14,698 nucleotides of DNA. It comes from Fibrobacterota bacterium (lineage in GTDB: Bacteria > Fibrobacterota > Chitinivibrionia > Chitinivibrionales > JANQEN01). Of the stretch, positions 163-14,595 are shown piece by piece. The notes beneath the pieces were generated by a model that saw only the letters and a list, made by a program, of their open reading frames with translations, was not told the origin of the DNA and ran no database searches. The stretch lies in contig JAUXBV010000017.1 of NCBI GenBank assembly GCA_030619215.1, positions 1 to 14,698 of the forward strand, read 5' to 3'. How positions within the stretch are numbered: the stretch's first letter is position 1; each line of letters starts with the position of its first letter. Made by a program: the position numbers and the translations under genes.

Positions 163-217
163 AAATGGCTATAATCATCATACAGTTTTAGTTTAATTTA
201 TTATAAAGGAGTAAGAC

Positions 218-1099: not shown

Positions 1100-1105
1100 T
1101 TTTTC

Positions 1106-1825
1106 GTGGAGCCCTATTATAAACGCATCCTCCTTAAGATCAGCGGTGAGGCTCTTTCCGGTGAGCGTGGTTTTGGTATTGACAATGAAGTTATAAAGCA
1201 GGTAGTATCGGAAATAAAACCGGTTTATAATGCCGGTGTAGAGATCGCCATGGTTATCGGTGGTGGAAATATACTTAGAGGCGTCGAGGCCGCTGCCAAA
1301 GGTTTAAACAGAACCGCTTCGGACACCGTGGGTATGCTTGCAACGATTATTAATTCACTTCTTTTCAAAGAAGCGCTCCTTGGCGCCGGTATTGAAGCGC
1401 GGGTACTCTCTGCAATAAAGGTTGAAAAAGCGGCGGAATTTTACATCCCGCAGCGTGCAATTAACCATATGAATAAAAGGCGAGTGGTTATCATTGCAGG
1501 AGGAACAGGAAACCCGTACTTTACAACCGATACAGCCGCCGCGCTTCGCTGTGTGGAAACGCAGTGTGAGGTATTATTAAAAGCAACCAAGGTAGACGGG
1601 ATATACGATTCGGATCCGGTTAAAAACCCCGATGCCGTTAAACTGAATACCATTACCCATAGTGAAGCTCTGAAACGGGATCTCAGGATAATGGATGCCA
1701 CCGCATTCTCCCTGTGCATGGAAAATAATGTTCCTATTATTGTATTTAAACTCCTTGAGTCCGGAAACCTTCGCAAATGTATTGAGGGACATCAAATAGG
1801 CTCCATTGTAAATAAAGGAGAGTAG
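1106..1825 (+). CDS. pyrH: UMP kinase
   Basis: This cytoplasmic enzyme phosphorylates UMP to UDP with ATP in pyrimidine nucleotide synthesis; it belongs to the bacterial amino acid kinase fold, not the eukaryotic UMP/CMP kinases. At 239 residues it has the normal length. Family motifs are intact: the N-terminal phosphate loop LLKISGEAL, the glycine-rich VIGGGNILRG, the DTVGMLATIIN helix, AGGTGNPYFTTDTAA and KATKVDGIYDSDP. The start is a GTG at 1106, chosen because the following MEPYYKRILLKISGEAL is the expected N-terminus and because GGAGTGGAGGAA lies just upstream, overlapping the tsf end. The stop is four bases before frr, which suggests coupled translation. Confidence 0.96.
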   Translation: MEPYYKRILLKISGEALSGERGFGIDNEVIKQVVSEIKPVYNAGVEIAMVIGGGNILRGVEAAAKGLNRTASDTVGMLATIINSLLFKEALLGAGIEARVLSAIKVEKAAEFYIPQRAINHMNKRRVVIIAGGTGNPYFTTDTAAALRCVETQCEVLLKATKVDGIYDSDPVKNPDAVKLNTITHSEALKRDLRIMDATAFSLCMENNVPIIVFKLLESGNLRKCIEGHQIGSIVNKGE

Positions 1826-1828
1826 GAA

Positions 1829-2392
1829 ATGAGTGTAATCGAATCTGTCAATTCTGAAACAGAAGAGCGAATGGGGAAAACGGTTGAAAATCTAAAAAAG
1901 GAATTCTCACGAATTCGCACCGGCCGTGCCACACCATCGCTACTTGAAGGAATCACCGTTGAATATTACGGTACGCCCATGCCGGTAAACCAGGTTGCGA
2001 CCATTACCATTCCCGAAGCGCGATTGATTCTTGTGCAGCCGTGGGAAAAAAACATGCTCGGCCCCATTGAAAAGGCAATTCAAGCCTCTAACCTGGGGCT
2101 TAACCCGATGAATGACGGTAATATCATCCGCCTGCCGATTCCGTCACTCACCGAGGAGCGTCGAAAGGAGCTCTATAAGAACTGTAAAAAGGCAAGCGAA
2201 GACAGTAAAGTTGCTATCAGGAACATCCGCCGTGACAGCAATGAAAAGCTGAAAAAAGCGGAAAAGGATAAAGAGATAACGCAGGATGAACAGAAAATAG
2301 GCCTTGACGAAATTCAGGAGTTAACCGACAGGTTCATAAAAGCCATTGATGAGCAATTGACAATTAAAGAAAAAGAGATTATGGAAATATAG
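1829..2392 (+). CDS. frr: Ribosome recycling factor
   Basis: RRF works with EF-G to split the post-termination ribosome complex. The product has 187 residues (family ~185). It contains the conserved RTGRATPSLLEGI segment of the helical domain, the hinge and domain II region EYYGTPMPVNQVATIT, then QPWEKNMLGPIEKAI, the NDGNIIRLPIPSLTEERRKEL motif, and the C-terminal long helix rich in Lys and Glu. GGAG in the end of pyrH provides the ribosome binding site; only three bases separate the pyrH stop from the frr ATG. It is the last gene of this transcription unit, because a terminator hairpin follows about 95 bases downstream. Confidence 0.97.
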   Translation: MSVIESVNSETEERMGKTVENLKKEFSRIRTGRATPSLLEGITVEYYGTPMPVNQVATITIPEARLILVQPWEKNMLGPIEKAIQASNLGLNPMNDGNIIRLPIPSLTEERRKELYKNCKKASEDSKVAIRNIRRDSNEKLKKAEKDKEITQDEQKIGLDEIQELTDRFIKAIDEQLTIKEKEIMEI

Positions 2393-2486
2393 CTTGCAGA
2401 AAAACGTTCTTTTAAAGGAAGTGTCATCAGGGCGAATATTTTTTCAATTAAGCTATCCATTTTGAAAATCAGTATAATTAAATCAT

Positions 2487-2523
2487 AAACCCCTTTGACT
2501 TCACAAAAGGGGTTTTATATTTT
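2487..2523 (+). terminator. Intrinsic terminator after frr
   Basis: A perfect 10-bp stem, AAACCCCTTT (2487-2496) and AAAGGGGTTT (2506-2515), encloses a 9-base loop and runs into a U-rich tail (TTTTATATTTT). The 3' arm merges with the tail, as in a typical Rho-independent terminator. It separates the tsf-pyrH-frr unit from uppS and lies 34 bases before the uppS ATG. Since no convincing promoter lies between hairpin and gene, read-through or a weak promoter must supply uppS; partial attenuation is possible. Confidence 0.85.
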
Positions 2524-2556
2524 GCTCATTATCATTATATTTTTACTGTGAGAATT

Positions 2557-3264
2557 ATGAACGTTCCGAAACATATAGGCATAATCATGGACGGCAACGG
2601 CCGCTGGGCAAAAAAGCGCGGCCTGCCGAGAGTTATGGGGCACCGTAAGGGCACCGAAGCTACGCACAACATTGTCGAAGCATGCGGTGAGCTCGGCGTC
2701 TCGTATCTTACCATATATGTTTTTTCCGCTGAAAACTGGGGCAGGCCGGAAAGCGAGGTAAAATTTCTCATGGAGCTTCTTGTTGAGATGATTCACAAGG
2801 AAGTAGACCTGCTCAATAAAAATAACGTTCAATTACATGCAATCGGCGATTTGGCAAAACTGCCGGAAAGCACATATATAGAGGTTATCAAAGGAATTGA
2901 AAGAACAAAAGACAATAGCGGCCTCAACCTCATTCTCGCTCTCAGCTATGGCGGGCGCGACGATATTGTCAATGCGGCAAAACTTTTTACCAGGGACGCC
3001 GTAAAAGACCCTTCCCTCATTGACAAACTCGATGAAGATACTTTTCGGAAATATTTATACACATCACCCTATCCCGACCCGGAACTTATAATACGCACCG
3101 GGGGAGAGAAACGTATCAGCAACTTTCTTATATGGCAGATCGCCTATTCAGAGCTTTACATAACAGACACACTCTGGCCGGACTTTAATAAGGATTGCCT
3201 TGCAGAAGCTATTGAAGACTTCAACAGCCGCGAACGCAGGTTTGGAAAGGTCCAAAAGCCCTAA
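2557..3264 (+). CDS. uppS: Isoprenyl transferase, undecaprenyl diphosphate synthase type (cis-prenyltransferase)
   Basis: UppS condenses isopentenyl diphosphate units onto farnesyl diphosphate in cis, making the C55 lipid carrier for peptidoglycan and other cell wall polymers. The 235-residue product has the complete family set: HIGIIMDGNGRWAKKRG with the catalytic Asp at residue 12, the FSAENWGRP loop, SYGGRDDIV, IIRTGGEKRISNFLIWQ, the LWPDF motif and the C-terminal SRERRFGKV. The ATG at 2557 is preferred because the family starts a few residues before HIxIIMDGNG; an in-frame GTG at 2548 would add three residues and cannot be excluded. Neither start has a good Shine-Dalgarno sequence. The stop TAA abuts the cdsA ATG with no spacer. 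Confidence 0.96.
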   Translation: MNVPKHIGIIMDGNGRWAKKRGLPRVMGHRKGTEATHNIVEACGELGVSYLTIYVFSAENWGRPESEVKFLMELLVEMIHKEVDLLNKNNVQLHAIGDLAKLPESTYIEVIKGIERTKDNSGLNLILALSYGGRDDIVNAAKLFTRDAVKDPSLIDKLDEDTFRKYLYTSPYPDPELIIRTGGEKRISNFLIWQIAYSELYITDTLWPDFNKDCLAEAIEDFNSRERRFGKVQKP

Positions 3265-4176
3265 ATGAATATTGCTAACCTTAGAAAACGCGTCTTCTTT
3301 GCTTTATGGGCAGCACCGCTTGGATGGTGGGTTGTTAATTCAAAATTATCTCTTCTATCTTTCTTACCGGGTGCAATTACATCAAAATATTCCATTCATG
3401 TTTACCCGGCAAATGTTCTGGCTGTTATCCTTATCTTTTGGGCTGCTTCGGAATATATCGGTATGCTCAGAAGATTATACCCGAAACACGGCTTCTGGCT
3501 CATCTATATATGGCTCGGGTACCAGACCCTTGCCTACTTTGCTCCAGACAACCTTCTTACATGGAATAAAGACACCTATATTCTCCTGATCCTTGTTGCA
3601 CTGGAAGCGGTAGTATGGGGCAAGCATACAGGCCGCTGGAAACGCGCCAGCCTTCTTTTCAGCGGGACGTCATTTTTAATTATCGCGCTCTTTTCAATGC
3701 TTGATTTTTACGACGAACCGTTCCGGAAAATTTTCCCTGCCCAATATGCACATTCCATGCTTTCACAACTGGGTGTCGTTTTCGTGGTCGGATCAATATT
3801 TCTCTGTGATTCAGCGGCGTTTTTTGCGGGGTCGCTTTTTGGTAAACATCACTTCAGCTCCATATCTCCCAAAAAAACCGTTGAAGGGGGCATCGCAGGC
3901 CTCGTCGTATCGACCATCACCGTGGGAATCGGATGGTATTTTTTTGCTGACGACAAATATCCCCTTATTCTTGGTATTATCCTGGGCTTATTAACCGGCC
4001 TCTTTGCACAAATCGGGGACCTGTTGGTTTCACTGATAAAACGATATTTTCATGTTAAGGACACTTCAAACCTTATTCCCGGACATGGCGGTATCCTTGA
4101 TAGATTCGACAGTGTCTTTTTTGCCGCCCCGATTATTAACCTGTATGTAATCATTATTAACAGAGTTATACAATAA
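3265..4176 (+). CDS. cdsA: Phosphatidate cytidylyltransferase (CDP-diglyceride synthase)
   Basis: This inner-membrane enzyme makes CDP-diacylglycerol from CTP and phosphatidic acid, the branch point of phospholipid synthesis. The 303-residue protein is hydrophobic with about seven or eight predicted membrane segments. The CDP-diglyceride synthase signature lies at residues 256-282 (SLIKRYFHVKD, then PGHGGILDRFD), including the metal-binding Asp residues. The upstream CDSAAFFAGSLFGKH block (181-195) followed by SPKKTVEGG is the other conserved region. The ATG directly follows the uppS stop, so translation is probably coupled; dxr starts six bases after its stop. The 20-50 region is longer and less conserved than in compact homologues. 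Confidence 0.95.
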   Translation: MNIANLRKRVFFALWAAPLGWWVVNSKLSLLSFLPGAITSKYSIHVYPANVLAVILIFWAASEYIGMLRRLYPKHGFWLIYIWLGYQTLAYFAPDNLLTWNKDTYILLILVALEAVVWGKHTGRWKRASLLFSGTSFLIIALFSMLDFYDEPFRKIFPAQYAHSMLSQLGVVFVVGSIFLCDSAAFFAGSLFGKHHFSSISPKKTVEGGIAGLVVSTITVGIGWYFFADDKYPLILGIILGLLTGLFAQIGDLLVSLIKRYFHVKDTSNLIPGHGGILDRFDSVFFAAPIINLYVIIINRVIQ

Positions 4177-4181
4177 CAAAA

Positions 4182-5336
4182 ATGAAAATCTTACTCCTCG
4201 GCTCAACCGGATCGATTGGGAAAAGCACCCTGAACTGTGTACGCCGATTCAAAGACTCCTTTGAACTGGCTGGATTAACCGTGAATAACAACATTGAGGA
4301 TCTTGCAGTACAGGTTGATGAATTTAGTGTGTCATCCGTCTGCGTATGCTCTGAGGAAGCGGCTGAAGATGCACGAAAAATGCTGCCGTCGATAATAAAG
4401 ATTTTTAAAGGTAAAAAGGGACTTGAGGACATTGTAAACGAAACCGATTTTGACATACTGCTCAATGCCCTTGTCGGAGCTGTAGGCTTCAGGCCGACCG
4501 TTGCGGCACTTAAAAGGAAAAAGCGCGTCGCTTTGGCCAATAAGGAAAGCCTTGTTATCGGCGGTGAAATAATCTCTTCGCTTCTCAAAGAGGGATACGG
4601 TGAGCTGATCCCTGTTGACAGCGAGCACAGCGCGATCCTGCAATGCCTTAACGGCGAGGATCCGGAAGCTATTGAAAGTATTACCATCACCGCATCGGGC
4701 GGGCCTTTTCGCAATAAAAATATCGAGCATTTTAACACCATTACCCCGAAGGAGGCCCTCAACCATCCCACATGGTCAATGGGAAATAAAATTACAATAG
4801 ACTCCTCCACCCTGATTAACAAGGGATTCGAGGTAATAGAGGCTCACTATCTCTTCAAGCTGCCCTATGATAGACTCCACGTCATGATTCACCCCCAGTC
4901 AATCATACACTCAATGGTCACGTTTCAAGATGGCGCCGTGATGGCGCAGTGCGGCGTGCCTGATATGGAACTGCCTATCCAGTATGCCCTCAGCTATCCG
5001 AAAAGACTTCCCATAATGGGAACAAGGCTTGATTTAGTTGAAACCGGCTCATTGACATTTGCGGAACCTGATTTCAACCGCTTCCCATGCCTGAAGCTCT
5101 GCATTGAAGCTGGAAAACAGGGAGGGACCCTGACAACCGTGCTTAACGCAGCTAACGAAATTGCGGTGCAGCAGTTTCTCAAGGGCGGCATCAGCTTCAA
5201 CCAGATAGCTGAAGTGATTGGGCAGGCTCTAAACAAACATCAAAATCAAAAAGTGGGAACCGTTGAACAGATTGAAGAAATAGATGCACTGACCCGTAAT
5301 CAGGTATTGAAAAGTATTAAAGATATAAAGCACTAA
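4182..5336 (+). CDS. dxr: 1-deoxy-D-xylulose 5-phosphate reductoisomerase
   Basis: Dxr converts DXP to 2-C-methyl-D-erythritol 4-phosphate with NADPH, the first committed step of the MEP isoprenoid pathway, in the cytoplasm. The 384 residues match the family length. The NADPH loop is GSTGSIG at residues 7-13; ANKESLVIGG lies at 119-128; the metal ligands are Asp146 and Glu148 in PVDSEHS and Glu217 in the NKGFEVIEAHYLF block; the flexible substrate loop lies around SGGPF and HPTWSMGNKIT (196-205). There is no recognisable Shine-Dalgarno sequence, and the ATG lies five bases past the cdsA stop, suggesting coupling. It supplies precursors for the UppS product encoded two genes upstream. Confidence 0.97.
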   Translation: MKILLLGSTGSIGKSTLNCVRRFKDSFELAGLTVNNNIEDLAVQVDEFSVSSVCVCSEEAAEDARKMLPSIIKIFKGKKGLEDIVNETDFDILLNALVGAVGFRPTVAALKRKKRVALANKESLVIGGEIISSLLKEGYGELIPVDSEHSAILQCLNGEDPEAIESITITASGGPFRNKNIEHFNTITPKEALNHPTWSMGNKITIDSSTLINKGFEVIEAHYLFKLPYDRLHVMIHPQSIIHSMVTFQDGAVMAQCGVPDMELPIQYALSYPKRLPIMGTRLDLVETGSLTFAEPDFNRFPCLKLCIEAGKQGGTLTTVLNAANEIAVQQFLKGGISFNQIAEVIGQALNKHQNQKVGTVEQIEEIDALTRNQVLKSIKDIKH

Positions 5337-5375
5337 GCTATTTTTAAAGAAACTAACCATAGAAAGAATTAACAA

Positions 5376-6707
5376 ATGACATTTATGCTGCAGATCGTTA
5401 TCGGAATCTTCATACTTGGCATACTGGTGCTTATTCATGAGGCCGGGCATTTTCTCGTTGCAAAAGCATGTGGCGTGCGCGTACTTACCTTTTCAATCGG
5501 ATTCGGCAGGCCTCTTTTTGCAAAAACAATCGGTAATACGGAATATCGTATCAGCTCAATCCCACTTGGCGGATATGTCCACATGGCCGGTGAACATCCT
5601 GAAGACAGCCATGCAGGCGCTGAAGATGAATTTACCGGCAAGCCGGTCTGGCAACGCGCATCAGTGGCAATAGCAGGGCCGTTGGCAAATGTCATTACCT
5701 CCATAATGTTTCTCTGGATCCTCTATATGGTTGGTGTTCAAACCCAGGTATACCAGAAGAGTCCCATAATCGGAAAGGTGGAAAAGGATTCCCCTGCTTT
5801 TATTGTCGGGTTAGAACAGGGTGACAGTATTATCGCGATAAACAATTCCCCGGTACATGACTGGAACCGGATAAAAAAGGTATTCTCTCTGCAGGAAGAA
5901 GTTTACGAAATTTCTTTTATCCGAAAAGGTGAGAAGAAAGAAGCAGCTATTGAAATGTCCCAGGGTAAAAAAGGTGATATACCCGAATTCCCTCTTGCAG
6001 GTTTAGAGCCGGTATTCCCTCCCCGTATCGGCGAAGTTAATGAAGGCTCCCCCGCGGAAAAAAACGGCATCCTTCCGGGTGATCTAATACTCGCAATTGA
6101 TAATACCACCATTAACACCTGGACTCAGATTCCTGATCTGGTGTCAAACTATGACTCTCTCCTGGGCCCAACACAGCTTGTCATAATGCGGGATGACTCT
6201 GTTGTTATTATTAACGCAGTGCCTTCATATAACGCAGACTACAAGAGATTTCTTCTCGGTATTGCCCTGGAAACAGAAACCGTTCAGTATGGTGTAATCG
6301 AAGCAATCCCTAAAGCCCTGGAAAAATCGTGGGAATATACCACGCTCATTTTTGATATGCTTTCAAAGCTTGTGAAGCGGAAAGTCTCTCCAAAGCAGCT
6401 CGCAGGGCCGGTGGGGATCATACAGATGTCGGGGGCCGCGGCTCTCGGGAGTATTACATTCCTTTTGAATTTCATGGCGCTCATCGGCATCAACCTTGCA
6501 GTAATAAACCTGTTCCCCCTGATAATTACCGATGGTGGCGTCCTCTTCTTTCTGATCATTGAAAGTATAAGGAGAAAACCGCTTTCCCTCAAAACACAGC
6601 TTCTTCTTAATAAAATTGCCATTGCCTTCTTTATCGCTCTTTTCATCTTCGTTACCTTTAATGACATTATGAGGCTGCCGAAGATGTTTCAGCTTTTAGG
6701 GAAGTGA
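5376..6707 (+). CDS. rseP: RIP metalloprotease RseP (site-2 protease)
   Basis: RseP is a zinc protease of the inner membrane that cleaves transmembrane substrates such as anti-sigma factors and signal-peptide remnants. At 443 residues it has the two-PDZ layout: membrane segment 1 with the zinc motif HEAGH (residues 21-25), the GGYVHMAGE membrane-associated loop (65-73), a second membrane segment near 100-120, PDZ domains about 130-210 and 212-290, then NLFPLIITDGG (378-388) carrying the third zinc ligand Asp386. The usual form of that motif is LDGGH; here Leu is Thr385 and His is Val389, while the Asp is kept, so activity is plausible. It follows dxr by 39 bases with a weak AGAAAG ribosome binding site, and is the last gene of the cluster. 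Confidence 0.95.
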   Translation: MTFMLQIVIGIFILGILVLIHEAGHFLVAKACGVRVLTFSIGFGRPLFAKTIGNTEYRISSIPLGGYVHMAGEHPEDSHAGAEDEFTGKPVWQRASVAIAGPLANVITSIMFLWILYMVGVQTQVYQKSPIIGKVEKDSPAFIVGLEQGDSIIAINNSPVHDWNRIKKVFSLQEEVYEISFIRKGEKKEAAIEMSQGKKGDIPEFPLAGLEPVFPPRIGEVNEGSPAEKNGILPGDLILAIDNTTINTWTQIPDLVSNYDSLLGPTQLVIMRDDSVVIINAVPSYNADYKRFLLGIALETETVQYGVIEAIPKALEKSWEYTTLIFDMLSKLVKRKVSPKQLAGPVGIIQMSGAAALGSITFLLNFMALIGINLAVINLFPLIITDGGVLFFLIIESIRRKPLSLKTQLLLNKIAIAFFIALFIFVTFNDIMRLPKMFQLLGK

Positions 6708-6733
6708 AATTTTTTATTAATTATTAATTTTTC

Positions 6734-6866
6734 GTAACTACTCAGGTATCCTTCGCATAAAGCGTCATTGCGAGCGTAGCGAAGCAATCTCATCTTTTCG
6801 AATGCAGGGGATTGCTTCGCTTCGCTCGCAATGACACTGAGAAAACCGCATCACCTGAATAGTCAC
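6734..6866. repeat. Nested palindromic intergenic repeat (MITE/REP-like)
   Basis: Two concentric inverted repeats lie in the gap between rseP and the flavoprotein gene. The inner arms, 6764-6788 and 6811-6835, are 25 bases long with one mismatch and a 22-base loop; they start GTCATTGCGAGCG and would fold into a very stable hairpin. The outer arms, 6734-6747 (GTAACTACTCAGGT) and 6853-6866, match in 12 of 14 positions. The inner core resembles widespread palindromic intergenic repeats that I recall from many bacterial genomes. The outer arms make it look like a small element with terminal inverted repeats. No coding capacity. It could also act as a bidirectional transcription stop after rseP, although no clear U-tract follows. 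Confidence 0.8.
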
Positions 6867-6892
6867 ATTTTTTTTTACAATTAACTCAATTT

Positions 6893-8164
6893 ATGAAAAA
6901 CAATAAATACAACTTAGCGGTAATCGGTGGTGGACCAACTGGAATGATCGCGGCAGGACATGCGGGAGAACTCGGCTCCCGTGTTATTTTACTTGAAAAA
7001 AACGAACATCTGGGAGTAAAGCTTTTAATTACCGGAAAAGGCAGATGTAATATTACAAATGCAGAAGAAGATTTGAAAAAACTAATAAATATTTATGGAC
7101 AAAATGGTAAATTTCTATATCCTGCTTTAAATAAATTTTCCAACAAAGATGTGGTGGTTTTTTTTGAAAGTCACGGACTTAAAACAAAAGTGGAAAGAGG
7201 CGGGAGAGTCTTCCCTGTCTCAGATAATGCCAAAGATGTTGTAGGTTGTTTAAAAAAATATTTAAAAGATAACAATGTGGAAATCAGATTGAATAGTCCG
7301 GTTGAAAAAATAATTATCAGTACCGAAAACAGTAATGATAATAAAATAGATAAAATTATTTTAAAAAACGGTGAAGAAATTATTGCAGCTAATTTTTTAT
7401 TTGCAACCGGAGGGAAATCTTATCCCGGGACCGGTTCTACCGGCGATGCATATAAATGGCTTAAAAAAATAGGGCATACAGTGGTAGAACCAAAACCGGC
7501 GCTTACTCCTGTTATCGTTAAAGAAAAAATAGTTAAAAAGCTTGAAGGTTTGAGTTTGAAAAATGTAGAAGTAAGTTTATGGAAAAAACGTAAACTTGAC
7601 TCTTGTTTTGGTGAAGCGCTTTTTACCGAAAATGGTTTAAGTGGCCCAACAGTATTAAATTTGAGCAAAAAAATAGGTGAAAACAAAATAAAAGATTTAA
7701 AAATAAAAATAAATTTTAAACCTGCACTCGATTACCCAACTTTAGACAAAAGGATTCTAAGGGATTTTAAAGAGCAAAAAAACAAACAATTCAAAAACAG
7801 CTTAAATAAACTGCTGCCTAAAAAACTTATTCCTGTTATTATTAAATTATCCGGAATTGAAGAAAATAAAAAAGTAAATGAAGTAACAAAAATTGAAAGA
7901 AAAAAATTAACCAAACTTTTAAAAGAATTTGAGCTTAGTATTAAAGGGCTTGTTGGTTTCGAAAAAGCGATTGTAACTTCAGGTGGAGTGGACTTAAAAG
8001 AAGTTTATCCAAAAACAATGAAGTCAAAAATAATAGGTAATCTGTATTTTGCCGGGGAAGTTTTAGATATTGACGGCCCGACTGGTGGATATAACCTGCA
8101 AGTCGCGTGGAGTACCGGGTATTTGGCTGGTGAAAAGAGCAATACATGTCGTTTGTTCACCTAA
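6893..8164 (+). CDS. HI0933-family FAD-dependent oxidoreductase (YhiN/BaiN-like flavoprotein)
   Basis: The 423-residue product begins with a dinucleotide-binding motif IGGGPTG at residues 11-17 for FAD. It carries the family blocks LITGKGRCNITN, FLFATGGKSYPGTGSTGDAY, GEALFTENGLSGPTVLNLS, VTSGGVDLKEV and the C-terminal FAD-closing YFAGEVLDIDGPTGGYN followed by AWSTGYLAG. Homologues are cytoplasmic flavoproteins; some reduce bile acid intermediates, but for most the substrate is unknown. The gene is much richer in A and T than the cluster to its left, with long runs of Lys, Asn and Ile codons, suggesting separate acquisition. No Shine-Dalgarno sequence is visible before the ATG. The last seven residues (NTCRLFT) are not family sequence: they come from reading a DUF4258 gene remnant out of frame, which also supplies the stop. 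Confidence 0.93.
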   Translation: MKNNKYNLAVIGGGPTGMIAAGHAGELGSRVILLEKNEHLGVKLLITGKGRCNITNAEEDLKKLINIYGQNGKFLYPALNKFSNKDVVVFFESHGLKTKVERGGRVFPVSDNAKDVVGCLKKYLKDNNVEIRLNSPVEKIIISTENSNDNKIDKIILKNGEEIIAANFLFATGGKSYPGTGSTGDAYKWLKKIGHTVVEPKPALTPVIVKEKIVKKLEGLSLKNVEVSLWKKRKLDSCFGEALFTENGLSGPTVLNLSKKIGENKIKDLKIKINFKPALDYPTLDKRILRDFKEQKNKQFKNSLNKLLPKKLIPVIIKLSGIEENKKVNEVTKIERKKLTKLLKEFELSIKGLVGFEKAIVTSGGVDLKEVYPKTMKSKIIGNLYFAGEVLDIDGPTGGYNLQVAWSTGYLAGEKSNTCRLFT

Positions 8165-8243
8165 AGAAGATTTTTTAGCATTAATCACGTCTTATTTACC
8201 GGACGAAGCAAAATGGAGCTCGGATTATAAAACGAGGATATAA
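8136..8243 (+). pseudogene. 3' remnant of a DUF4258 (toxin-type) gene
   Basis: In the frame one base ahead of the flavoprotein, codons from about 8136 to the TAA at 8241-8243 read RAIHVVCSPKEDFLALI and then TSYLPDEAKWSSDYKTRI. This matches, from memory, the C-terminal third of DUF4258 proteins (a PLHVV...ITxYxPDPxxWxxDFKTR pattern), small proteins encoded just upstream of YgiT-type zinc-finger antitoxins. No start codon or N-terminal domain exists upstream, because that space is occupied by the end of the flavoprotein gene. The stop lies three bases before the ygiT-like ATG, the normal spacing for the pair. I read it as a toxin gene beheaded by a deletion or insertion with a breakpoint near 8130-8140. 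Confidence 0.75.
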
Positions 8244-8246
8244 TTC

Positions 8247-8459
8247 ATGGAATGTATCTATTGTAAATCAGAAATGCAAAGAGGAACAGCGCCTTATCAT
8301 ATTGACAGACATGGCTATCACCTTCTTTTAGATAAGGTCCCGGCATGGATTTGCTTACAATGCGGTGAACCATATTTTGAAGAGAAAGAAGTTGATGAAA
8401 TTCAAGCCGCAATTAGAGAAATGGATAAGCACGCATCAAAGCAGCAGACTTTCGCATAA
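8247..8459 (+). CDS. YgiT-type zinc finger protein (orphan antitoxin)
   Basis: This 70-residue protein has two CxxC pairs (Cys3/Cys6 and Cys36/Cys39) that would bind one zinc. The block VPAWICLQCGEPYFEEKEVDEI (residues 31-52) is typical of the YgiT/MqsA N-terminal family. There is no C-terminal helix-turn-helix as in full-length MqsA, so it belongs to the short form normally paired with a DUF4258 protein. GAGG at 8234-8237, nine bases before the ATG, serves as ribosome binding site and lies inside the end of the DUF4258 remnant. Because the toxin partner survives only as a fragment, this is probably an antitoxin without its toxin. Expression would depend on transcription through the flavoprotein gene. 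Confidence 0.88.
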   Translation: MECIYCKSEMQRGTAPYHIDRHGYHLLLDKVPAWICLQCGEPYFEEKEVDEIQAAIREMDKHASKQQTFA

Positions 8460-8473
8460 ATCTCAACCTGATC

Positions 8474-8551
8474 GTTATACTCGCAGTGTATAACATTGTG
8501 TAGAAGCAGGAAGGTCATTCTCATGCCCTTTTGCTTAACACAATGTTAATC
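8474..8551. repeat. attC-like inverted-repeat hairpin after ygiT-like gene
   Basis: The 7-mer GTTATAC (8474-8480) is followed after seven bases by its inverse GTATAAC (8488-8494). From there a long imperfect stem starts: TAACATTGTGT (8491-8501) pairs perfectly with ACACAATGTTA (8538-8548), then AAGCA (8504-8508) pairs with TGCTT (8532-8536) and AAGG (8511-8514) with CCTT (8527-8530), leaving unpaired bases and a 12-base loop. Ends in TAAC/GTTA with an interrupted stem recall an integron attC, with R'' at 8488-8494 and R' at 8545-8551. However, the segment that should be an unpaired spacer is perfectly paired here. It lies 28 bases after the ygiT-like stop. It may instead be a transposon-derived palindrome. 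Confidence 0.45.
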
Positions 8552-8552
8552 G

Positions 8553-8852
8553 ATAACATCCTTTATGAAAGGAGATGGAGGGAATCTCTTAATAGGAATA
8601 GATGGCGAAGGTGTTGTTCTTGGTCTTTTCCCCGATTACTCGACATTGAAAGATGGTAATAAGGACAAATTCGAATTACATCTGACACAAGTTTTAATCA
8701 AAGATTTCACACTTCCCACTTTCAAAGCTTACTGCAGAATTACATTCTTGCCATACGCTGAACATGAAGTATGTGTCGTTACTGTCAATCCCAGCATACA
8801 GCCCCATATCTCCTTTTTATTGATTGTCACAAGGTGCCAGCTTGCCTGGTAG
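8553..8852 (+). pseudogene. AlbA_2 / Schlafen-type domain gene fragment
   Basis: The frame from 8550 reads SITSFMKGDGGNLLIGIDG and continues through GLFPDYSTLKDGNKDKFELHL and EVCVVTVNPSIQP. This matches, from memory, the central part of AlbA_2 (formerly AAA_4) domains, whose pattern is AFxNxxGGxLLIGVxDDGxIxGL and later KEVCRVxVxPSxxPV. Both ends are missing: the LEFK-type start of the domain is absent upstream, where a palindrome lies instead, and after about 8805 the sequence turns into unrelated residues before a TAG at 8850-8852. A 95-codon reading frame from the ATG at 8565 exists but has no Shine-Dalgarno sequence at normal spacing, so I regard it as a decayed fragment. Its last bases nearly touch the gltP-like gene on the other strand. 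Confidence 0.7.
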
Positions 8853-8869
8853 AACGCACTTATTCTACG

Positions 8870-10099
8870 CTAACTCGAACTCTTTTTAACATTTAACTGA
8901 TCCACGATAATCGCACAGGTCGCATCTCCTGTTATATTCAGGGCCGTACGAATCATGTCGAATACCCGGTCAACCGCATACAGGAGCGGAAGACCTACAA
9001 TGGGAATATCGGCCGCTACAAGTACTGCGACAACAAGCAGGCTTGGCCCCGGCACACCTGCCTGACCTATGGAACCGATTGTGGCGGTCAAAAGAATGGC
9101 GACATATTGAGCCACGCCGAGTTCAATACCGAACAGCTGTGAAAAGAATATAGCTGCCAGTGCGTAATAGATGGCGTTACCGTCCATGTTAATCGTGGCA
9201 CCCAACGGAAGGACAAAGGAAGATGTGGCTTTTGAAACCCCCAGTTCCTCTTCGCACACCTCAAAATTTACCGGCAGGGTGGCCATGGAGGAGGAAGTTG
9301 AAAGAGCCACCAATTGTGCTTTGTAAATCTTAGAGAAGAATCTTTTAAGCGGCATTTTAGAGAATATTTTCAGCATCAGCGGGTAAAAACCGAAGCCGTG
9401 CAGAAGAATAACCACTATATAAATAATCAGTAGTTTTAAAACCAGTCCCAGTATCTCATAGCCAAAGGTTCCGATAGAGCTGGCCATCAATCCAAAAACG
9501 CCGAAAGGCGCAACTAACATAACGATGCGGATCATCCAGATAAACGCCTCTGTAAGATAATTAAAAATTTTCAGAAGGAAATCCTTCTTATCATTACTTA
9601 AAGTTGAAATTCCCAGTCCCAGGAAAAGGCAGAAAAACAGCACCTGTAAAATATTCCCGCTGACAAGGGCCTCAATGGGATTTACAGGAATAATTCCGAA
9701 AATTATCTGCCAGAAACCCGGTGTAGAGCCTTGCCCGGCTTTTTCAGCGGAAAACATGTGCTGCACAGTAGTTACATCAAGGCCTACACCAGGCTTAAAA
9801 ATCTCACCGAAGATAATACCGAGAATAACCGCGACAGCTGTGGTGCCCAGGTAATAGAAAAAGGTAGATATGCCGATTTTCCCTGCGTATTTTGTTCCGC
9901 CAAGCGAGGCCGCGCCGGAGATAACCGATACAGCAACCAGGGGGATCACAAGCATTTTGATCAGCTGCATGAAGAATTCACCGAGTGGTGCGAAAAAAAT
10001 TGCTTTTTCTCCCCAAATAGCTCCAACAACTATACCAAGGACCATTGCAATCAGAATTTGAATACCAAGGTTTCCTACTAATTTCCTGATTTTTTCCAT
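8870..10099 (-). CDS. Dicarboxylate/amino acid:cation symporter (DAACS, GltP/GltPh-type)
   Basis: This 409-residue inner-membrane protein is an SLC1-type secondary transporter. It shows the serine-rich HP1 tip TSSSMATLP (268-276), the TM7 motif NMDGN (304-308), the HP2 region IGQAGVPGPS (344-353) and the TM8 block DRVFDMIRTALNITGD (377-392). TM8 keeps the equivalents of GltPh Asp394 (Asp381), Arg397 (Arg384), Asn401 (Asn388) and Asp405 (Asp392); the Arg favours acidic substrates such as aspartate or glutamate over neutral amino acids. Two positions differ: NMDGN replaces the usual NMDGT, and HP2 has PGPS for PGAG. The start ATG has AGAGG upstream and a promoter (10138-10166). It is divergent from the kinase gene and monocistronic. 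No convincing terminator follows. Confidence 0.94.
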   Translation of the reverse strand: MEKIRKLVGNLGIQILIAMVLGIVVGAIWGEKAIFFAPLGEFFMQLIKMLVIPLVAVSVISGAASLGGTKYAGKIGISTFFYYLGTTAVAVILGIIFGEIFKPGVGLDVTTVQHMFSAEKAGQGSTPGFWQIIFGIIPVNPIEALVSGNILQVLFFCLFLGLGISTLSNDKKDFLLKIFNYLTEAFIWMIRIVMLVAPFGVFGLMASSIGTFGYEILGLVLKLLIIYIVVILLHGFGFYPLMLKIFSKMPLKRFFSKIYKAQLVALSTSSSMATLPVNFEVCEEELGVSKATSSFVLPLGATINMDGNAIYYALAAIFFSQLFGIELGVAQYVAILLTATIGSIGQAGVPGPSLLVVAVLVAADIPIVGLPLLYAVDRVFDMIRTALNITGDATCAIIVDQLNVKKSSS

Positions 10100-10137
10100 A
10101 AAAACCTCTTCCTCTAAGGTAAATAAATGTGGGAATT

Positions 10138-10166
10138 AATATATGTGTTCCAAGGTTTTTATTCAA
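10138..10166 (-). promoter_or_regulatory. Putative sigma70-type promoter for the DAACS transporter
   Basis: Read on the - strand, TTGAAT (10166-10161) is followed after exactly 17 bases by TATATT (10143-10138). Both hexamers match the vegetative consensus in four or five positions and lie about 40-65 bases upstream of the transporter ATG, leaving room for a short leader with the AGAGG ribosome binding site. No operator-like palindrome overlaps it. Confidence 0.5.
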
Positions 10167-10263
10167 TTAAAATTATTGTAATAATAAAAAAGGCAGGAAT
10201 AGTACAATTTTAAATGCTGACCAATTAGCCTTTTAATGATATAATTACTTTATCAGCGCCTTC

Positions 10264-10293
10264 TTGACTTAAAATATAAGGGACGAATAAAAC
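10264..10293 (+). promoter_or_regulatory. Possible promoter of the kinase-regulator operon
   Basis: TTGACT (10264-10269) is a good -35 match. The best -10 candidates at 17-18 bases, ATAAAA or TAAAAC (10287-10293), are weak. The surrounding 226-base divergent intergenic region is very AT-rich, and I see nothing else of note in it. The start would lie about 25 bases before the kinase ATG. Confidence 0.3.
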
Positions 10294-10325
10294 AGGATAT
10301 ATAATCATTTATAAGATATTCTATT

Positions 10326-11849
10326 ATGCACATTGGCAATATTGTAACTGTCGGTATTGATAACCAACCGTTTATCAATAATCTCGGAAAAAACGGTTAT
10401 ACCGTAATCCCTGTGGATGACATACCCCAGGTCCTTGACGTCAACGACCCATTCGACCTTATGCTGGTACGCGGGAGCCTTTTAGTTGACTTCAGCAATG
10501 AAGACCTGGAGCGGATCTACTTCACCAATAACCGCACCCCTGTTGCACTGATCATAAAAGATCCAACCACCGTTACTGAAAAATTGTCAAAGGTTATTAC
10601 AAGCGGCTCTTTTGATGTCCTGTACGAAGCTGAGATAGAAAACGATACGATCTATCCACGAATCGACAAATTATTTATCACTTCAAAATTAAATAAAAAG
10701 CTTGATAATATGCAGCAGGATTTCCACAGCAAGGAAACGTTAAAGGAAGAGATAACTCTTCGCGAGCAGATTCTGGCTCATGAGCGTGTGCTTAATACAA
10801 ACATTATTGCATCCATAACATCAGGGCTTATTATTATTGATATTAACGGAACAATCATCCTTGCCAACGAACACACCAGGCAGGTGCTTAAGGATCCTGA
10901 TGCCGAAATAATAGGCACTCCATATAACTCTTCTCTTTTGGCGGAAATAGGCAATACGGTCGATAATTTTTTAAAAAAAATCAATAAATCAAGCAGCAGT
11001 ATTTCTGCAAAGAAATTTAAAATTAAGGATTCGTTTTTCAGCGTCTACTGCTACCGTATGCTCGATTATGAAAACAATCCCACCGGCATCCTCATGCTTA
11101 TCAATGACATAACGGAACAGGAGACCTTAAACACATCGCTCTACCGCTCGGAAAAACTTGCAACCATCGGAACAATGCTTTCGGGTATAGCCCACGAGCT
11201 CCGCAACCCGCTTGCAATTATAAGTGCCCGAACCCTGCGCGCTTTGAAAAAAAATGATTTTGAAAAAGAGTGGACAAACAAATGCTTCCAGTCCATAGAT
11301 TCTCAAACAAAACGGTGCGCATCAATAGTCAACAACCTGCTTAACTTCACCCGGAACACTGCCACCACATCAGGATTTCATAAGATAAAAGATATACTGG
11401 AAGAAACGTTATCCTATGTAAACTACCAGAACACCTTTGACAACATTGCGGTAATAAAAAAGTATACGGACGGGCTTTTTGTGTATGGCGACCGGTCCCG
11501 TTTCGTGCAGATTTTTCTCAATTTAATCACCAATGCCGCTGATGCAATGGAAGGCAAGGGTGATCTGAAAATAATTACCAAACTGGCAGGCAATGCTGCC
11601 ACCACTGTTGAGATTAACGATACGGGTCCCGGTATTGACGAGGAATTAAAGAATAAGATTTTTGATCCGTTTTTCACTACAAAAGACCCGGGTAAGGGAA
11701 CCGGGCTCGGTCTTGCCATTGTCTATAAGATAGTTCAGGAAAGTGACGGGAAAATATGGCTCAAGTCAAAACCCGGCAATACCTCATTTTTTGTACAACT
11801 TCCCTCAAAAAAGGAACGTTCCTATGGCAGCTCGTATTCTGGTCGTTGA
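10326..11849 (+). CDS. PAS domain sensor histidine kinase, soluble
   Basis: The 507-residue kinase has no membrane segment, so it is probably cytoplasmic. Order: an N-terminal ~115-residue alpha/beta region that resembles a degenerate receiver domain; a coiled coil about 121-155; a PAS domain about 157-265 ([16 protein letters not shown] to [11 protein letters not shown]); HisKA with phospho-acceptor His290 in [11 protein letters not shown]; then HATPase_c with the N box (NLITNAADA, Asn403), G1 DTGPGI (432-437), F box FDPFFTTK and G2 [10 protein letters not shown]. This is the NtrB-like class. No Shine-Dalgarno sequence precedes the ATG. Its last 26 bases overlap the start of the receiver gene, so they form a translationally coupled pair. 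The signal is unknown; a soluble PAS sensor suggests an internal cue. Confidence 0.93.
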
Positions 11850-12732
11850 TGACGAAGTTGATTTTCTCGATGTAATGCACGAATTCCTCGAAGACGAAGG
11901 GTATGAAATTGAAACGGCCCTGAATGGGGAGGAAGCCCTCAATACCCTTGAAAAAAGCAGCTTTGACCTGCTGGTCTCCGATATAAATATGCCTGGTATA
12001 AAAGGATTTGAGCTTTTACATAAAGCATCACAGCTATATCCTGATCTCAAACGCATTTTGATTACAGCTTATGATGTACGGGATTATATCAACATGGCAA
12101 AAAATTATAATATTGGAAACATCATAACCAAAACCACACCATTCAATTTTGAAGAGATTCAGGTGTTTATTGATAATATCCTGACAGGTAATATCTTTGG
12201 TCTGGATAAATATGTTCAGGGGAAAATTCACCAGTCTTTTATAAGAACAAATAATGATATAACGAAAGCAAATAATGATGTTATTGACTTTATGAAAAGC
12301 GAACGGAATAAACGCAAATTCAAACAGGCCCTTGGCGAAATTGTAATCAATGCATTTTTCTATGGCGCAAAACAGGAGGATCCTGAAAAAAAGCAGAATT
12401 GGAGATTTGATACGACACTAAAGAAAAGCGAGCAAGTTGTAGTAAGCTGGGCAAGAGATAGTGAGAAAACAGGGGTTGCCGTAACCGATCAAAAGGGACG
12501 GCTCGCGAAAAAGGATGTTGTGTTCTGGCTTGAGCGAAATACCACAAAGGGAGAGGATGGATTATCAATCGGGCTTACGGACAGCCATGGAAAAGGACTC
12601 TTTATTACAAGAGAGGTGATCGATCGAATGATTATTAACATAGATCCGGGTAAAAGAACAGAAATAATTATGGTAAATTATGAGGAAGGCCTGTACGACG
12701 GGCACAGGCCTTTGTGGATTCAGGAATTATAA
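11824..12732 (+). CDS. Response regulator with RsbW-like HATPase output domain
   Basis: This 302-residue protein starts with a complete receiver domain (1-~120): acidic pair Asp9/Asp10, phospho-acceptor Asp53 in VSDINMPG, Thr81 and Lys103. A linker (about 121-165) leads to a GHKL ATPase-like domain: N box LGEIVINAFFYGA (Glu172, Asn176), G1-like VTDQKGRL (Asp222, Gly225) and G2-like DSHGKGLFI (253-261). That pattern is closest to anti-sigma factor serine kinases such as RsbW or SpoIIAB rather than sensor kinases; there is no DNA-binding domain and no HisKA. The ATG at 11824 is chosen over an upstream in-frame ATG (11743) because the receiver begins there and AAGGAA (11811-11816) fits as ribosome binding site. 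It probably relays the upstream kinase's signal to a partner-switching pathway. Confidence 0.88.
   Translation: MAARILVVDDEVDFLDVMHEFLEDEGYEIETALNGEEALNTLEKSSFDLLVSDINMPGIKGFELLHKASQLYPDLKRILITAYDVRDYINMAKNYNIGNIITKTTPFNFEEIQVFIDNILTGNIFGLDKYVQGKIHQSFIRTNNDITKANNDVIDFMKSERNKRKFKQALGEIVINAFFYGAKQEDPEKKQNWRFDTTLKKSEQVVVSWARDSEKTGVAVTDQKGRLAKKDVVFWLERNTTKGEDGLSIGLTDSHGKGLFITREVIDRMIINIDPGKRTEIIMVNYEEGLYDGHRPLWIQEL
12686..12712 (+). repeat. GC-rich hairpin in the 3' end of the regulator gene
   Basis: AAGGCCTGT (12686-12694) and ACAGGCCTT (12704-12712) form a perfect 9-bp stem with a 9-base loop within the coding sequence, 18-20 bases before the stop codon. The downstream TGTGGATT is not a U-tract, so it is not a standard terminator, but it could protect the mRNA 3' end or slow polymerase. 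Confidence 0.5.
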
Positions 12733-12761
12733 CAGTATGTTATACCTCTGTGAGGTATAAC
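12728..12761. repeat. Alternating TATAAC/GTTATA boxes and short hairpin
   Basis: TATAAC (12728-12733) is followed by its inverse GTTATA (12739-12744) and again TATAAC (12756-12761). GTTATACCTC (12739-12748) and GAGGTATAAC (12752-12761) form a perfect 10-bp stem with a 3-base loop. The stop of the regulator gene lies inside the first box. No U-tract follows on either strand. The last box is also the end of the attC-like site next to it, and the GTTATAC...GTATAAC pair recurs at 8474-8494. Confidence 0.6.
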
Positions 12762-12807
12762 GCAGAATTCAGCAGAACCCAACGGGCTTCTGCTGCAATG
12801 GTTATAA
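12755..12807 (-). repeat. attC-like recombination site (short), end of cassette run
   Basis: Read on the - strand the site runs from TTATAAC (R'', 12807-12801) to GCGTTATAC (R', 12763-12755). The outer boxes TATAAC/GTTATA pair; the next segments (12762-12769 and 12796-12800) do not; then CAGCAGAA and CCC (12770-12780) pair with GGG and TTCTGCTG (12784-12795), leaving one extra base at 12787 and a 3-base loop. Outer boxes, unpaired spacer, inner stem with an unpaired base and an R' starting GTT are the attC plan. At 53 bp it is at or below the lower size limit I know for attC, hence the moderate confidence. It lies 84 bases downstream of the stop of the 403-residue gene. Confidence 0.6.
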
Positions 12808-12890: not shown

Positions 12891-12906
12891 CCTATTCCGA
12901 AATAGG
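12891..12906 (-). terminator. Weak hairpin at the end of the 403-residue gene
   Basis: CCTATT (12891-12896) and AATAGG (12901-12906) form a 6-bp stem with a 4-base loop that includes the stop codon of the - strand gene. The tail read on the - strand is TTTACTAAAAAG, only modestly U-rich, so termination here is uncertain. Confidence 0.25.
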
Positions 12907-14103
12907 ACTAAAGCACTTTACTGTACCTGGTTTTCTTAAAATAAACTCTGAAGTGTCGGGAGGGGTGCCAATAGGTTTTATATTATATGTTTTCTCCGCC
13001 CATGACACTATATTATTAAAAAGCTCCTGTACTTTTTTTCTACCACCATATAATTCAACCCTATTATCATCTGTCGGTCGCTCAGTAACAAAGCAAAAGT
13101 CATATTTGAACTCTGCTTCAGGATTAATTCGTAACAATGCTGAAATTATAGGAACTCTTATTGTGGTATAACCTCCACTAACATAAGGACTCTTGAATCT
13201 TTCTTTATCACTTATGGGAGAATAAAGAGCGCGGATAAGAGCTTTTGCACATTCTTTTGTTCCTGCAATACCTAATTTTTTTGCCAAAGCACTTTTCTTA
13301 CGGAAATTATTTTCTTCCTCAAATTTATCTATCAGCTTCTTTTCAGCTTTTTTATCACCAAGTCTTGCTCTGTACTCTAATGCACCTATTTTAATAGTAT
13401 CAAGTAAGTATTTTTTTTCTTTTTGTGACATAGGTAAAAGTAAATATAATTTGTCGTATATTGCTCTTTTTTCTATCTCTTTGTAATTATTTTTTAACAG
13501 TTTTTCGCCTTTTTTAATGTCTTTATTAATACTTTTTCTATCTTCCTTGGAAGAACTTCTCTTCAAGAATCCTCTAAGCTTTAGGATACGATCTTCAATT
13601 TCAGCTTCATATAATCTTGGAATATACTCCTTTATTTCATCACTGTATCTTGCCAGATAATCTTCTCTACCATATTTAATTAAAATTTCACGTGCTTTAT
13701 TTTTAACCGAGTAATTTTTATCTTTAAACGCATGTATACAAATTCTGAAAAACCTCTCATCTTCTATAAAAATGGATTGAAATCCCTGTTGCTTATTTAG
13801 ATTCACATATTTCAGGTTATTAATTGTTGAGATAGATCTTCCTATATAGCCAATACTACTCAGTATGTCGTATTTTTTTGTGCTAATACTTATTGGTATT
13901 TCTGCTTTAAAAAAACCATAAAATTTTAGTATTATTTCTTTGTGGGATATTAATGAGTCGTTCACCTTGTTGAGAATATATTGGCGATTCTGGTTTACAC
14001 TCTCAATAAAAATATCTTTTGCATCGCAATCCTTTCCTTTACTAAATAGCAAAGAATATAGCAAAAACTGTATCATTAGAAAATAATTAACACTTCTTTT
14101 CAT
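12892..14103 (-). CDS. Hypothetical exported protein with HEAT-like helices (cassette gene)
   Basis: I do not recognise this 403-residue protein. It begins MKRSVNYFLMIQFLLYSLLFSK, a likely signal peptide or anchor, followed by a Cys at residue 26. The rest is mostly helical and Lys/Glu-rich. Residues about 120-145 (AFKDKNYSVKNKAREILIKYG) and about 245-295 (GDKKAEKKLIDKF, then LGIAGTKECAKALIRAL) look like HEAT or PBS-lyase-type repeats, which are usually protein-binding surfaces. The C-terminal ~70 residues are less repetitive. The start is supported by AAGAGA 7-12 bases before the ATG. The ATG lies 14 bases after the R' end of the attC site at 14118-14198, and an attC-like site follows the gene, so it is probably a mobile gene cassette. 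The gene is much richer in A/T than the left-hand cluster. Confidence 0.8.
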   Translation of the reverse strand: MKRSVNYFLMIQFLLYSLLFSKGKDCDAKDIFIESVNQNRQYILNKVNDSLISHKEIILKFYGFFKAEIPISISTKKYDILSSIGYIGRSISTINNLKYVNLNKQQGFQSIFIEDERFFRICIHAFKDKNYSVKNKAREILIKYGREDYLARYSDEIKEYIPRLYEAEIEDRILKLRGFLKRSSSKEDRKSINKDIKKGEKLLKNNYKEIEKRAIYDKLYLLLPMSQKEKKYLLDTIKIGALEYRARLGDKKAEKKLIDKFEEENNFRKKSALAKKLGIAGTKECAKALIRALYSPISDKERFKSPYVSGGYTTIRVPIISALLRINPEAEFKYDFCFVTERPTDDNRVELYGGRKKVQELFNNIVSWAEKTYNIKPIGTPPDTSEFILRKPGTVKCFSPISE

Positions 14104-14117
14104 ATTAGGTCTCTTAT

Positions 14118-14198
14118 ATATAACGCTTAGGCTCAGCAGATTCCAGCCTAACCTTTTAAGCTTTCCATGCTGGATTCTGTTGCAGCCTCTTGTTACAC
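14118..14198 (-). other. Integron-type attC recombination site
   Basis: On the - strand the site runs from GTGTAAC (R'', 14198-14192) to GCGTTATAT (R', 14126-14118), 81 bp. The halves fold back on each other: TAAC/GTTA outer boxes; a mismatched spacer (about 14125-14128 with 14189-14191); AGGCT (14129-14133) with AGCCT (14184-14188); an extra unpaired C at 14183; then CAGCAGATTCCAGC (14134-14147) with 14169-14182, allowing one mismatch and one G-U pair; and a 21-base loop. This is the attC plan: two R/L box pairs, an extra-helical base on the R'' side, and sequence conserved only at AAC/GTT. It sits 16 bases after one gene's stop and 14 bases before the next gene's ATG, as in a cassette array read on the - strand. 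Confidence 0.8.
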
Positions 14199-14214: not shown

Positions 14215-14595
14215 CTATTCCTCTTCCACAATAACAATCCAGGTTGACTGTGTTCCACTCCACTTCCAAGTCTTGCCAGTTTTCTGGTCAATTCTAATAT
14301 AAATTTCATACTCTTTCCTCGACTTTTCAAAATTATGGCAAAGCAGTTTGTATCTGGGCTCATTGCCACTTTCCAATTTAGAGTAATCTTTCCCCTCGGG
14401 GATAATTTTCCATCCTCCACCTAACGATTCGCTGTATTTCCACGTCTTTCCTGAGTAACGGTCGAGCTTGATATAGACCTCATATTTCCCCCTTTTAATC
14501 CGATAATTGTGTGTGCTTAGTATAAAACGGTTATCATTTGCCAGAACGACCGAAGTAAGATAAAAAAGCGAGACTAGTATTAGAATTGTTTTCAT
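14215..14595 (-). CDS. Small secreted protein with two tandem repeats (cassette gene)
   Basis: I do not recognise this 126-residue protein. It opens with a signal peptide (MKTILILVSLFYLTSVVLA, cleavage likely after Ala19). The mature part consists of two copies of a ~44-residue unit: residues 23-67 and 82-125 share HN[YF], KYE[VI]YI[KR][LI]D, [ST]GKTWK[YW]S and a closing W-x-I-I/V. The alternating hydrophobic pattern with Trp and Tyr suggests a small beta-rich domain. The ATG at 14595 is chosen because AAAGGA lies just upstream and the signal peptide starts there; the frame stays open 31 codons further upstream, but that part looks non-coding. The attC site begins 16 bases after the stop. The 103 bases upstream to the window edge show no further gene. 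Confidence 0.8.
   Translation of the reverse strand: MKTILILVSLFYLTSVVLANDNRFILSTHNYRIKRGKYEVYIKLDRYSGKTWKYSESLGGGWKIIPEGKDYSKLESGNEPRYKLLCHNFEKSRKEYEIYIRIDQKTGKTWKWSGTQSTWIVIVEEE

What the first reader, a model, noticed from the sequence alone, without database searches (positions are those of the whole stretch)
14118..14198. An integron attC site joins two exported-protein genes as a cassette array
Directly visible: an 81-bp imperfect inverted repeat with TAAC/GTTA ends, mismatched spacer, unpaired extra base on the R'' side and a 21-base loop, exactly between two same-strand genes with 16 and 14 bases to the neighbouring stop and start codons. Known: this is the layout of integron gene cassettes. 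Inference: the - strand genes from 12892 to beyond 14698 are cassettes, and the array continues past the right edge. No tyrosine recombinase IntI is in the window, so it is the tail of a chromosomal integron or an integrase-less attC cluster, unexpectedly close to core genes.
Basis: partly seen in the sequence, partly recalled or inferred. Interest (0 to 1): 0.85.

Follow-up and report, generated by a model that had tools for sequence, protein, structure and literature searches.

The report
Two-cassette integron tail without integrase
This genome fragment ends in two genes, each followed by a hairpin-forming DNA site that matches the attC sites of integrons, so the two genes, at least one of them likely for an exported protein, were probably captured as mobile cassettes; this is a known kind of gene-capture array, here with no integrase gene found in the assembled genome and with more candidate sites scattered among ordinary genes.

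Summary
The 81-bp site at 14118-14198 (- strand) has an attC layout: 48.9 bits with a covariance model built from six sites including it, and 30.9 bits, E 1.1e-4 per 114 kb, with a model that never saw it. Its 74-nt core recurs at 89-95% identity on two other contigs of the same genome, between unrelated genes, and the identity stops at AAC/GTT. If it is real, the window meets the published minimum for a CALIN (cluster of attC sites lacking an integron integrase). I count 15 candidate sites on 11 contigs, several near core genes. No integron integrase over cut-off was found in the assembled 3.64 Mb, but the genome is only 68.6% complete. Of 40 other genomes searched, 39 of the same order, 6 carry true IntI. 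This is a known kind of system. Less ordinary are the scatter of small clusters, one junction at G|TT in a dispersed repeat (suggestive only), and several predicted lipoproteins among the cassette genes.

The parts
14118..14198 (-). attC site W1, 81 bp. R'' 14192-14198 (GTGTAAC), R' 14118-14124 (GTTATAT; predicted cut G|TT between 14124 and 14123), unpaired G at 14183, loop 14148-14168
R'' TTATAAC, R' GTTATAC (G at 12761)
   Evidence: R2 25.6 bits; R3 21.7 bits with filters off, not listed by R3 with default filters; fold z -3.9 and -5.1
14215..14595 (-). cassette gene 1: 126-aa predicted exported protein of two beta-rich repeats, no Pfam family; homologues P0007 (69%), P0008, P0009
12892..14103 (-). 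cassette gene 2: 403-aa protein; its N-terminus looks signal-like by eye but fails my hydrophobicity rule; predicted mostly helical, no Pfam family; 67% identical homologue P0002
12716..12761 (-). half of a dispersed palindromic repeat (full copies on contigs C61 and C389); the similarity starts at the G of the W2 R' G|TT
11824..12732 (+). chromosomal neighbour: response regulator, convergent with the cassettes
10326..11849 (+). chromosomal neighbour: PAS histidine kinase

Best explanation
The right end of the window is most likely the tail of an integron cassette cluster: two genes in a row on the - strand, each followed by an attC-type site, which an integron integrase would recognise and recombine. 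Shown here: the two model-matching sites, their gene-attC-gene-attC order, the recurrence of the first site next to other small genes on other contigs, and the end of the cluster beside a two-component system. Inferred: the folded bottom strand (the window's + strand) of each attC is bound by an IntI and cut between G and TT of R', so each gene moves as a circle and joins at another attC, at attI or at an off-target GTT. Inferred: the IntI acts or acted in trans, from the missing third of this genome or from an earlier or foreign source, since none was found in the assembled part. Because small clusters sit at several separate places among ordinary genes, off-target insertion of cassettes is the likeliest origin of this one.
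For: attC model scores for W1 and W2, held-out model for W1. Validation of model R2: over the best 80 of 561 loci around IntI genes of named genomes it gives 17 hits at E <= 0.01 in 12 of 80 loci, and 17 of 17 lie on the strand opposite to intI, the canonical orientation. W1 core shared with C10 (94.6%) and C50 (89.2%) over 74 nt, while the 60 nt on either side match at only 15-21 of 60. C50 shows attC-gene-attC-two genes-attC-gene. W1 and W2 lie 1.3 kb apart on one strand; in the three contigs with two or more sites all seven sites agree in strand. 9 of the 15 sites have a same-strand gene ending within 120 nt before them. Cassette region GC 32.5% against 41.8% for window 1-12732. Of 40 other genomes 6 have IntI over the TIGR02249 cut-off, and G012 has IntI with two attC on the opposite strand (both are training sites of R2). 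Genes near other sites: ThiG, trigger factor and ThiC, EF-G, YbeY and CorC, an RnfB-like ferredoxin, a GH18 protein.
Against: No IntI found: 7 matches on four contigs of the own genome, all below the cut-off. The best one (C405, 111 bits) is cut by its contig end, and the full-length relatives that I aligned (P0010, P0011, P0014, P0016) lack the IntI-specific insert. No attI and no empty site could be shown. The C10 and C50a copies of the site do not fold better than shuffles (z -0.56 and -0.35), so parts of the collection may be inactive. The held-out model does not return C50a, C10, C58 3518-3590 and C534, nor W1 with filters off. W2 has unequal spacers and is weak. The sites of C161, C171 and C365 have no same-strand gene within 200 nt before them and C534 has none at all. 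The other end of this cluster is not assembled.
Confidence: 0.87

Rival explanations
1. The cluster is the far end of one large sedentary chromosomal integron whose integrase and attI lie in the unassembled third of the genome; the other contigs with attC are broken pieces of the same array.
For: Draft assemblies split integrons, helped by similar attC sites (PMC9024848, passages seen). The cluster contigs C417, C50 and C58 end 0.1-0.5 kb before their first assembled site. W1, C10 and C50a share nearly the same attC, as is described for sedentary integrons (PMC8618304, passages seen).
Against: Five other contigs (C404, C161, C30, C574, C171) carry one site of 20 bits or more each, with core-type genes within about 2 kb, which one continuous array would not give. 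No IntI over cut-off in 3.64 Mb.
Confidence: 0.3
2. The inverted repeat is a transcription terminator or a REP/MITE-like palindrome that merely resembles attC.
For: The same genome has a dispersed multi-hairpin palindromic repeat, in several copies directly at stop codons, and W2 abuts half of one. W1 and W2 lie between genes.
Against: The model finds sites in the canonical orientation at known integrons and hits only 1 of 40 relative genomes at E <= 0.001 (limited recall). W1 has the TAAC/GTTA boxes, a spacer pair, a one-sided unpaired base and no T run, and its copies sit behind unrelated genes with homology ending at AAC/GTT.
Confidence: 0.06
3. W1 is a true attC, but W2 is only the convergent terminator and palindrome between the response regulator and the last gene, so the window holds one complete cassette and a last gene without attC.
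For: W2 is weak (25.6 bits), its spacers are unequal, it abuts a palindromic module, hairpins are expected between convergent genes, and the held-out model does not list it with default filters.
Against: It is the second-best R2 hit of the window and the best R3 hit with filters off, 21.7 bits against 13.4 for the next; it is in the expected place and strand, and its R'/R'' boxes pair in the predicted fold.
Confidence: 0.25

Closest known systems
CALIN (cluster of attC sites lacking an integron integrase)
   Same: Two attC candidates less than 4 kb apart with no IntI found (criterion in PMC9668308, passages seen)
   Different: Absence of IntI is not proven, because the genome is 68.6% complete and the contig ends in the array
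Off-ilvD CALINs of Xanthomonas (PMC12444791, passages seen)
   Same: Small attC clusters at several separate chromosomal places (seven loci there), away from intI
   Different: Here one to three sites per contig, in an unnamed incomplete genome with no IntI locus seen
Sedentary chromosomal integrons
   Same: Near-identical attC sites behind unrelated genes of mostly unknown function
   Different: No intI-attI platform and no long array seen
Cassette insertion at attG sites (Loot et al. 2024, seen only as cited in PMC12444791)
   Same: Clusters among ordinary genes; the W2 junction lies at a G|TT of another sequence
   Different: No empty site and no second junction shown here

Membership tests
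attC site | R'' (RYYYAAC) and R' (GTTRRRY) boxes that pair (consensus recalled) | tested here: met
   W1 GTGTAAC/GTTATAT, one mismatch to consensus in each, 7 of 7 pair counting G-T; W2 TTATAAC/GTTATAC
attC site | L''/L' stem with spacers and an extra unpaired base on the L'' side (recalled) | tested here: met
   W1: unpaired G at 14183, spacers 3 and 4 nt. W2 fits less well, with unequal spacers
attC site | Covariance-model match | tested here: met
   Home-made models R2 and R3 (against: W1 not listed with filters off). IntegronFinder's own model could not be run
attC site | Recombined by IntI through the folded bottom strand | not testable with these tools
   needs an assay
CALIN | Two or more attC less than 4 kb apart | tested here: met
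   W1 and W2 are 1.3 kb apart on one strand; depends on W2 being real
CALIN | No integron integrase nearby | tested here: inconclusive
   None over cut-off in the 3.64 Mb assembled, but 68.6% complete and the contig ends in the array
complete integron | intI gene with attI next to the array | tested here: not met
   no recombinase among the window's ORFs; no IntI over cut-off in the assembled genome; attI was not searched for
gene cassette | Modular ends: homology between cassettes stops at G|TT | tested here: met
   W1 against C10 and C50a: 74-nt core then 15-21 of 60

The most novel reading that the evidence does not exclude
In this lineage integron cassettes live as a dispersed population: an integrase has scattered single cassettes and small clusters, several of them with lipoprotein genes, into many chromosomal sites, and here it used the G|TT of a dispersed palindromic repeat as a landing site, so that the repeats serve as a reusable docking platform in place of attI.
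Probability: 0.15. Interest if true: 0.65.

Novelty: new member of a known kind. Interest (0 to 1): 0.4.

Why it matters
If off-target insertion is confirmed, it shows how cassettes become ordinary chromosomal genes, and why exported proteins and toxin-antitoxin pairs may spread this way.

Tried and rejected
Rfam: no family reaches its gathering score in the window; RF01698, my first guess for attC, is another family. The response regulator as a probe in genome contigs gave no relatives. Model R1 was built with a misplaced structure line and was not used. An intI of the own genome was sought in C405 and rejected: the relatives P0010, P0011, P0014 and P0016 that I aligned lack the IntI insert. 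G012 was dropped from that alignment because my script did not find its frame. Empty site: five relatives of the response regulator show no attC by R2 at E <= 1 in the stretch held (up to 1.5 kb on either side). Of the four whose downstream side I looked at, two (G006, G005) share one neighbour gene and two (G008, G002) have others; the downstream side of G010 was not looked at. No empty site was built. The dispersed-repeat junction: similarity to C61, C334 and C389 starts at the G of G|TT, but that is also the edge of the palindrome itself, and the other half was not found at another array end, so I keep it as suggestive only. Taxonomy: not settled; one distant integrase relative is named Fibrobacteria (P0027), which is weak. 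Fold search of the 403-aa model: no match at E <= 0.001; the top rows are mostly helical-repeat proteins. A late literature search for lipoproteins in chromosomal integron cassettes gave five papers by listing, none opened.

Full report
What is there. From the right edge leftwards the - strand carries a gene (126 aa, 14215-14595), attC W1 (14118-14198), a gene (403 aa, 12892-14103) and attC W2 (12755-12807); then come, convergent on the + strand, a response regulator and a histidine kinase.

Is W1 more than chance. As single-stranded DNA the bottom strand (window + strand) folds with z = -3.53, 0 of 200 shuffles as well, and in that fold part of the R boxes, the stem and the unpaired base appear as in an attC. 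A geometry scan written for this purpose gives 17.8; shuffles of the 14 scanned sequences (361,949 bases) give 1 hit at 16 or more and none at 17. At its lowest threshold (14) the scan is not selective: 10 hits in 120,685 real bases, 14 in the shuffled ones, and it does not list C10 3342-3421 or C50 621-701. I built a covariance model (R2) from the arms of six sites: W1, two sites of contig C50, two of relative G012 and one of relative G035. It gives W1 48.9 bits. As W1 was in its training set, I built a second model (R3) from four sites without W1 and its near copy: W1 then scores 30.9 bits, E = 1.1e-4 for 114 kb. R3 with filters off, on the window alone, does not list W1 and lists W2 as best with 21.7 bits.

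Is the model good. On 80 loci around IntI genes of named genomes (the best 80 of 561) R2 gives 17 hits at E <= 0.01 in 12 of 80 loci, and all 17 are on the strand opposite to intI, where cassettes lie in integrons. So its sensitivity is low on distant integrons and its specificity good. In 40 genomes other than our own it hits one at E <= 0.001 (G012, which has IntI and gave two training sites); that tool scored at most 146 candidates per genome and missed the other strong G012 site, so the count is a lower bound.

Other sites in this genome. The whole-genome search (150 of 435 candidates scored) gave 14 places at E <= 10. Full scans of the contigs concerned give 15 sites of 20 bits or more on 11 contigs: C417 two, C50 three, C58 two, and one each on C404, C30, C365, C161, C574, C171, C534, C10. 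Three of the 15 (W1 and two of C50) are training sites of R2. With R3, 9 of the 14 sites not in its training set return at E <= 0.1 in the joint search and W2 only in the filters-off search; C50 621-701, C10, C58 3518-3590 and C534 do not return. A systematic sample of 92 of 579 contigs (every fifth up to C460, 575,927 bases) shows six sites of 20 bits or more on four contigs, all already known. Eight further own contigs gave nothing.

Cassette character. The W1 core is 94.6% identical to C10 and 89.2% to C50a over 74 nt; outside AAC...GTT the flanks match at 15-21 of 60. That is how cassettes look when the same attC is joined to different genes. C50 has three sites and four small genes in one direction. 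Of the 15 sites, 9 have a same-strand gene ending within 120 nt before them, two (C50 106-160 and C58 3518-3590) lie 105 nt from a contig end, and four do not fit well: C171 (206 nt), C161 (276 nt), C365 (318 nt), and C534, which has no same-strand gene before it. C30 carries a PIN toxin with a ribbon-helix-helix antitoxin and C404 a DUF6932 gene before their sites. Of the eight genes in the C417, C50 and C10 clusters, five pass a simple lipobox rule against 16 of 429 background genes, and a sixth (C10, 146 aa) looks like one by eye; seven of eight pass a lenient hydrophobic-N-terminus rule against 142 of 429, the 403-aa gene being the one that fails; of the nine genes tabled at other sites none passes the lipobox rule. 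The choice of these three clusters was made after seeing them. A review puts signal peptides at 10-30% of cassette proteins (PMC8618304, passages seen).

Scattered or one array. C404, C161, C30, C574 and C171 have core-type genes within about 2 kb of their sites (ThiG; trigger factor and ThiC; an RnfB-like ferredoxin, the name recalled; EF-G; YbeY and CorC). That is hard to fit into one long array cut by assembly, although the cluster contigs C417, C50 and C58 do end 0.1-0.5 kb before their first assembled site. In Xanthomonas, CALINs at seven places outside the main integron are described (PMC12444791, passages seen), and the review names off-target insertion as one origin of CALINs.

The integrase. 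TIGR02249 gives seven matches on four contigs of the own genome, none over the cut-off. The best one, at the cut end of C405, belongs to a family whose aligned full-length members (P0010, P0011, P0014, P0016) lack the insert that the IntI of the relatives show. Of 40 other genomes (39 of the same order, one of the same phylum), 6 have IntI over the cut-off. So the order has integrons; whether this genome has lost its IntI or it is simply unassembled cannot be told.

The junction. Downstream of W2 the sequence matches half of a dispersed palindromic repeat, and the match to C61, C334 and C389 starts at the G of the W2 G|TT. This is what insertion of a cassette at a GTT of that repeat would leave. 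But the palindromic module has its own edge at the same base, shorter variants exist (C323), and no contig shows the other junction. I rate it as suggestive.

The cassette proteins. Neither has a Pfam family at E <= 0.001. The 126-aa protein has no second copy in the own genome and three homologues in the protein collection, the nearest 69% identical and of the same length; its model is poor (pLDDT 61). The 403-aa protein has five homologues, the nearest 67% identical, weak partial matches in 3 of 39 other genomes of the order, and a model of pLDDT 79 that is mostly helical, without a PDB match at E <= 0.001. Their functions stay unknown.

Literature. A list of phyla with integrons from 2021 does not name Fibrobacterota (PMC8618304). 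Searches for Fibrobacter or Fibrobacterota with integron (and attC) gave five papers, seen by title and abstract listing only, none about integrons of that phylum as far as the listing shows. Since the phylum of this genome rests on one weak name, I make no claim of a first report.

Verdict. The finding is real and correctly read; it is an ordinary kind of element, with a second attC candidate added here and a scattered distribution that deserves a closed genome.

Noticed in passing
window 12716-12761; L162 3263-3354; L164 3775-3866; L165 1-107; L163 3037-3085: Dispersed palindromic repeat of about 92 bp with AACAGT...ACTGTT ends made of hairpin modules, in several copies starting directly at a stop codon; looks like a MITE or REP-like family.
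   Followed up: partly
window 8247-8459 and 8565-8852 (+): Small MqsA-type zinc-finger antitoxin-like gene (22.9 bits, below Pfam cut-off) and a short AlbA_2-like gene (24.1 bits, below cut-off); no attC hit near them.
   Followed up: no
L020 1-893 (contig C405): Tyrosine recombinase with a long N-terminal extension, cut by the contig end; the relatives aligned (P0010, P0011, P0014, P0016) resemble IntI in architecture but lack the IntI insert.
   Followed up: partly
L040, L042, L047 (relatives G002, G008): Same-order IntI proteins carry an extra N-terminal region of roughly 110 residues before the usual IntI start; hits in some other taxa cover it too.
   Followed up: no
L268, L271, L273, L274 (G009 contig C25, 25045-28883): Four neighbouring genes related to the C-terminal half of the 403-aa cassette protein, without attC by model R2 in the stretches held.
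   Followed up: partly
L154 382-1077 (contig C30): PIN/RHH toxin-antitoxin pair directly before a 48-bp attC-like site, next to an RnfB-like gene.
   Followed up: partly
L159 610-670 (contig C171): Possible further weak attC behind the 177-aa gene (17.9 bits with R3 only), which would make that gene a second cassette of C171.
   Followed up: no
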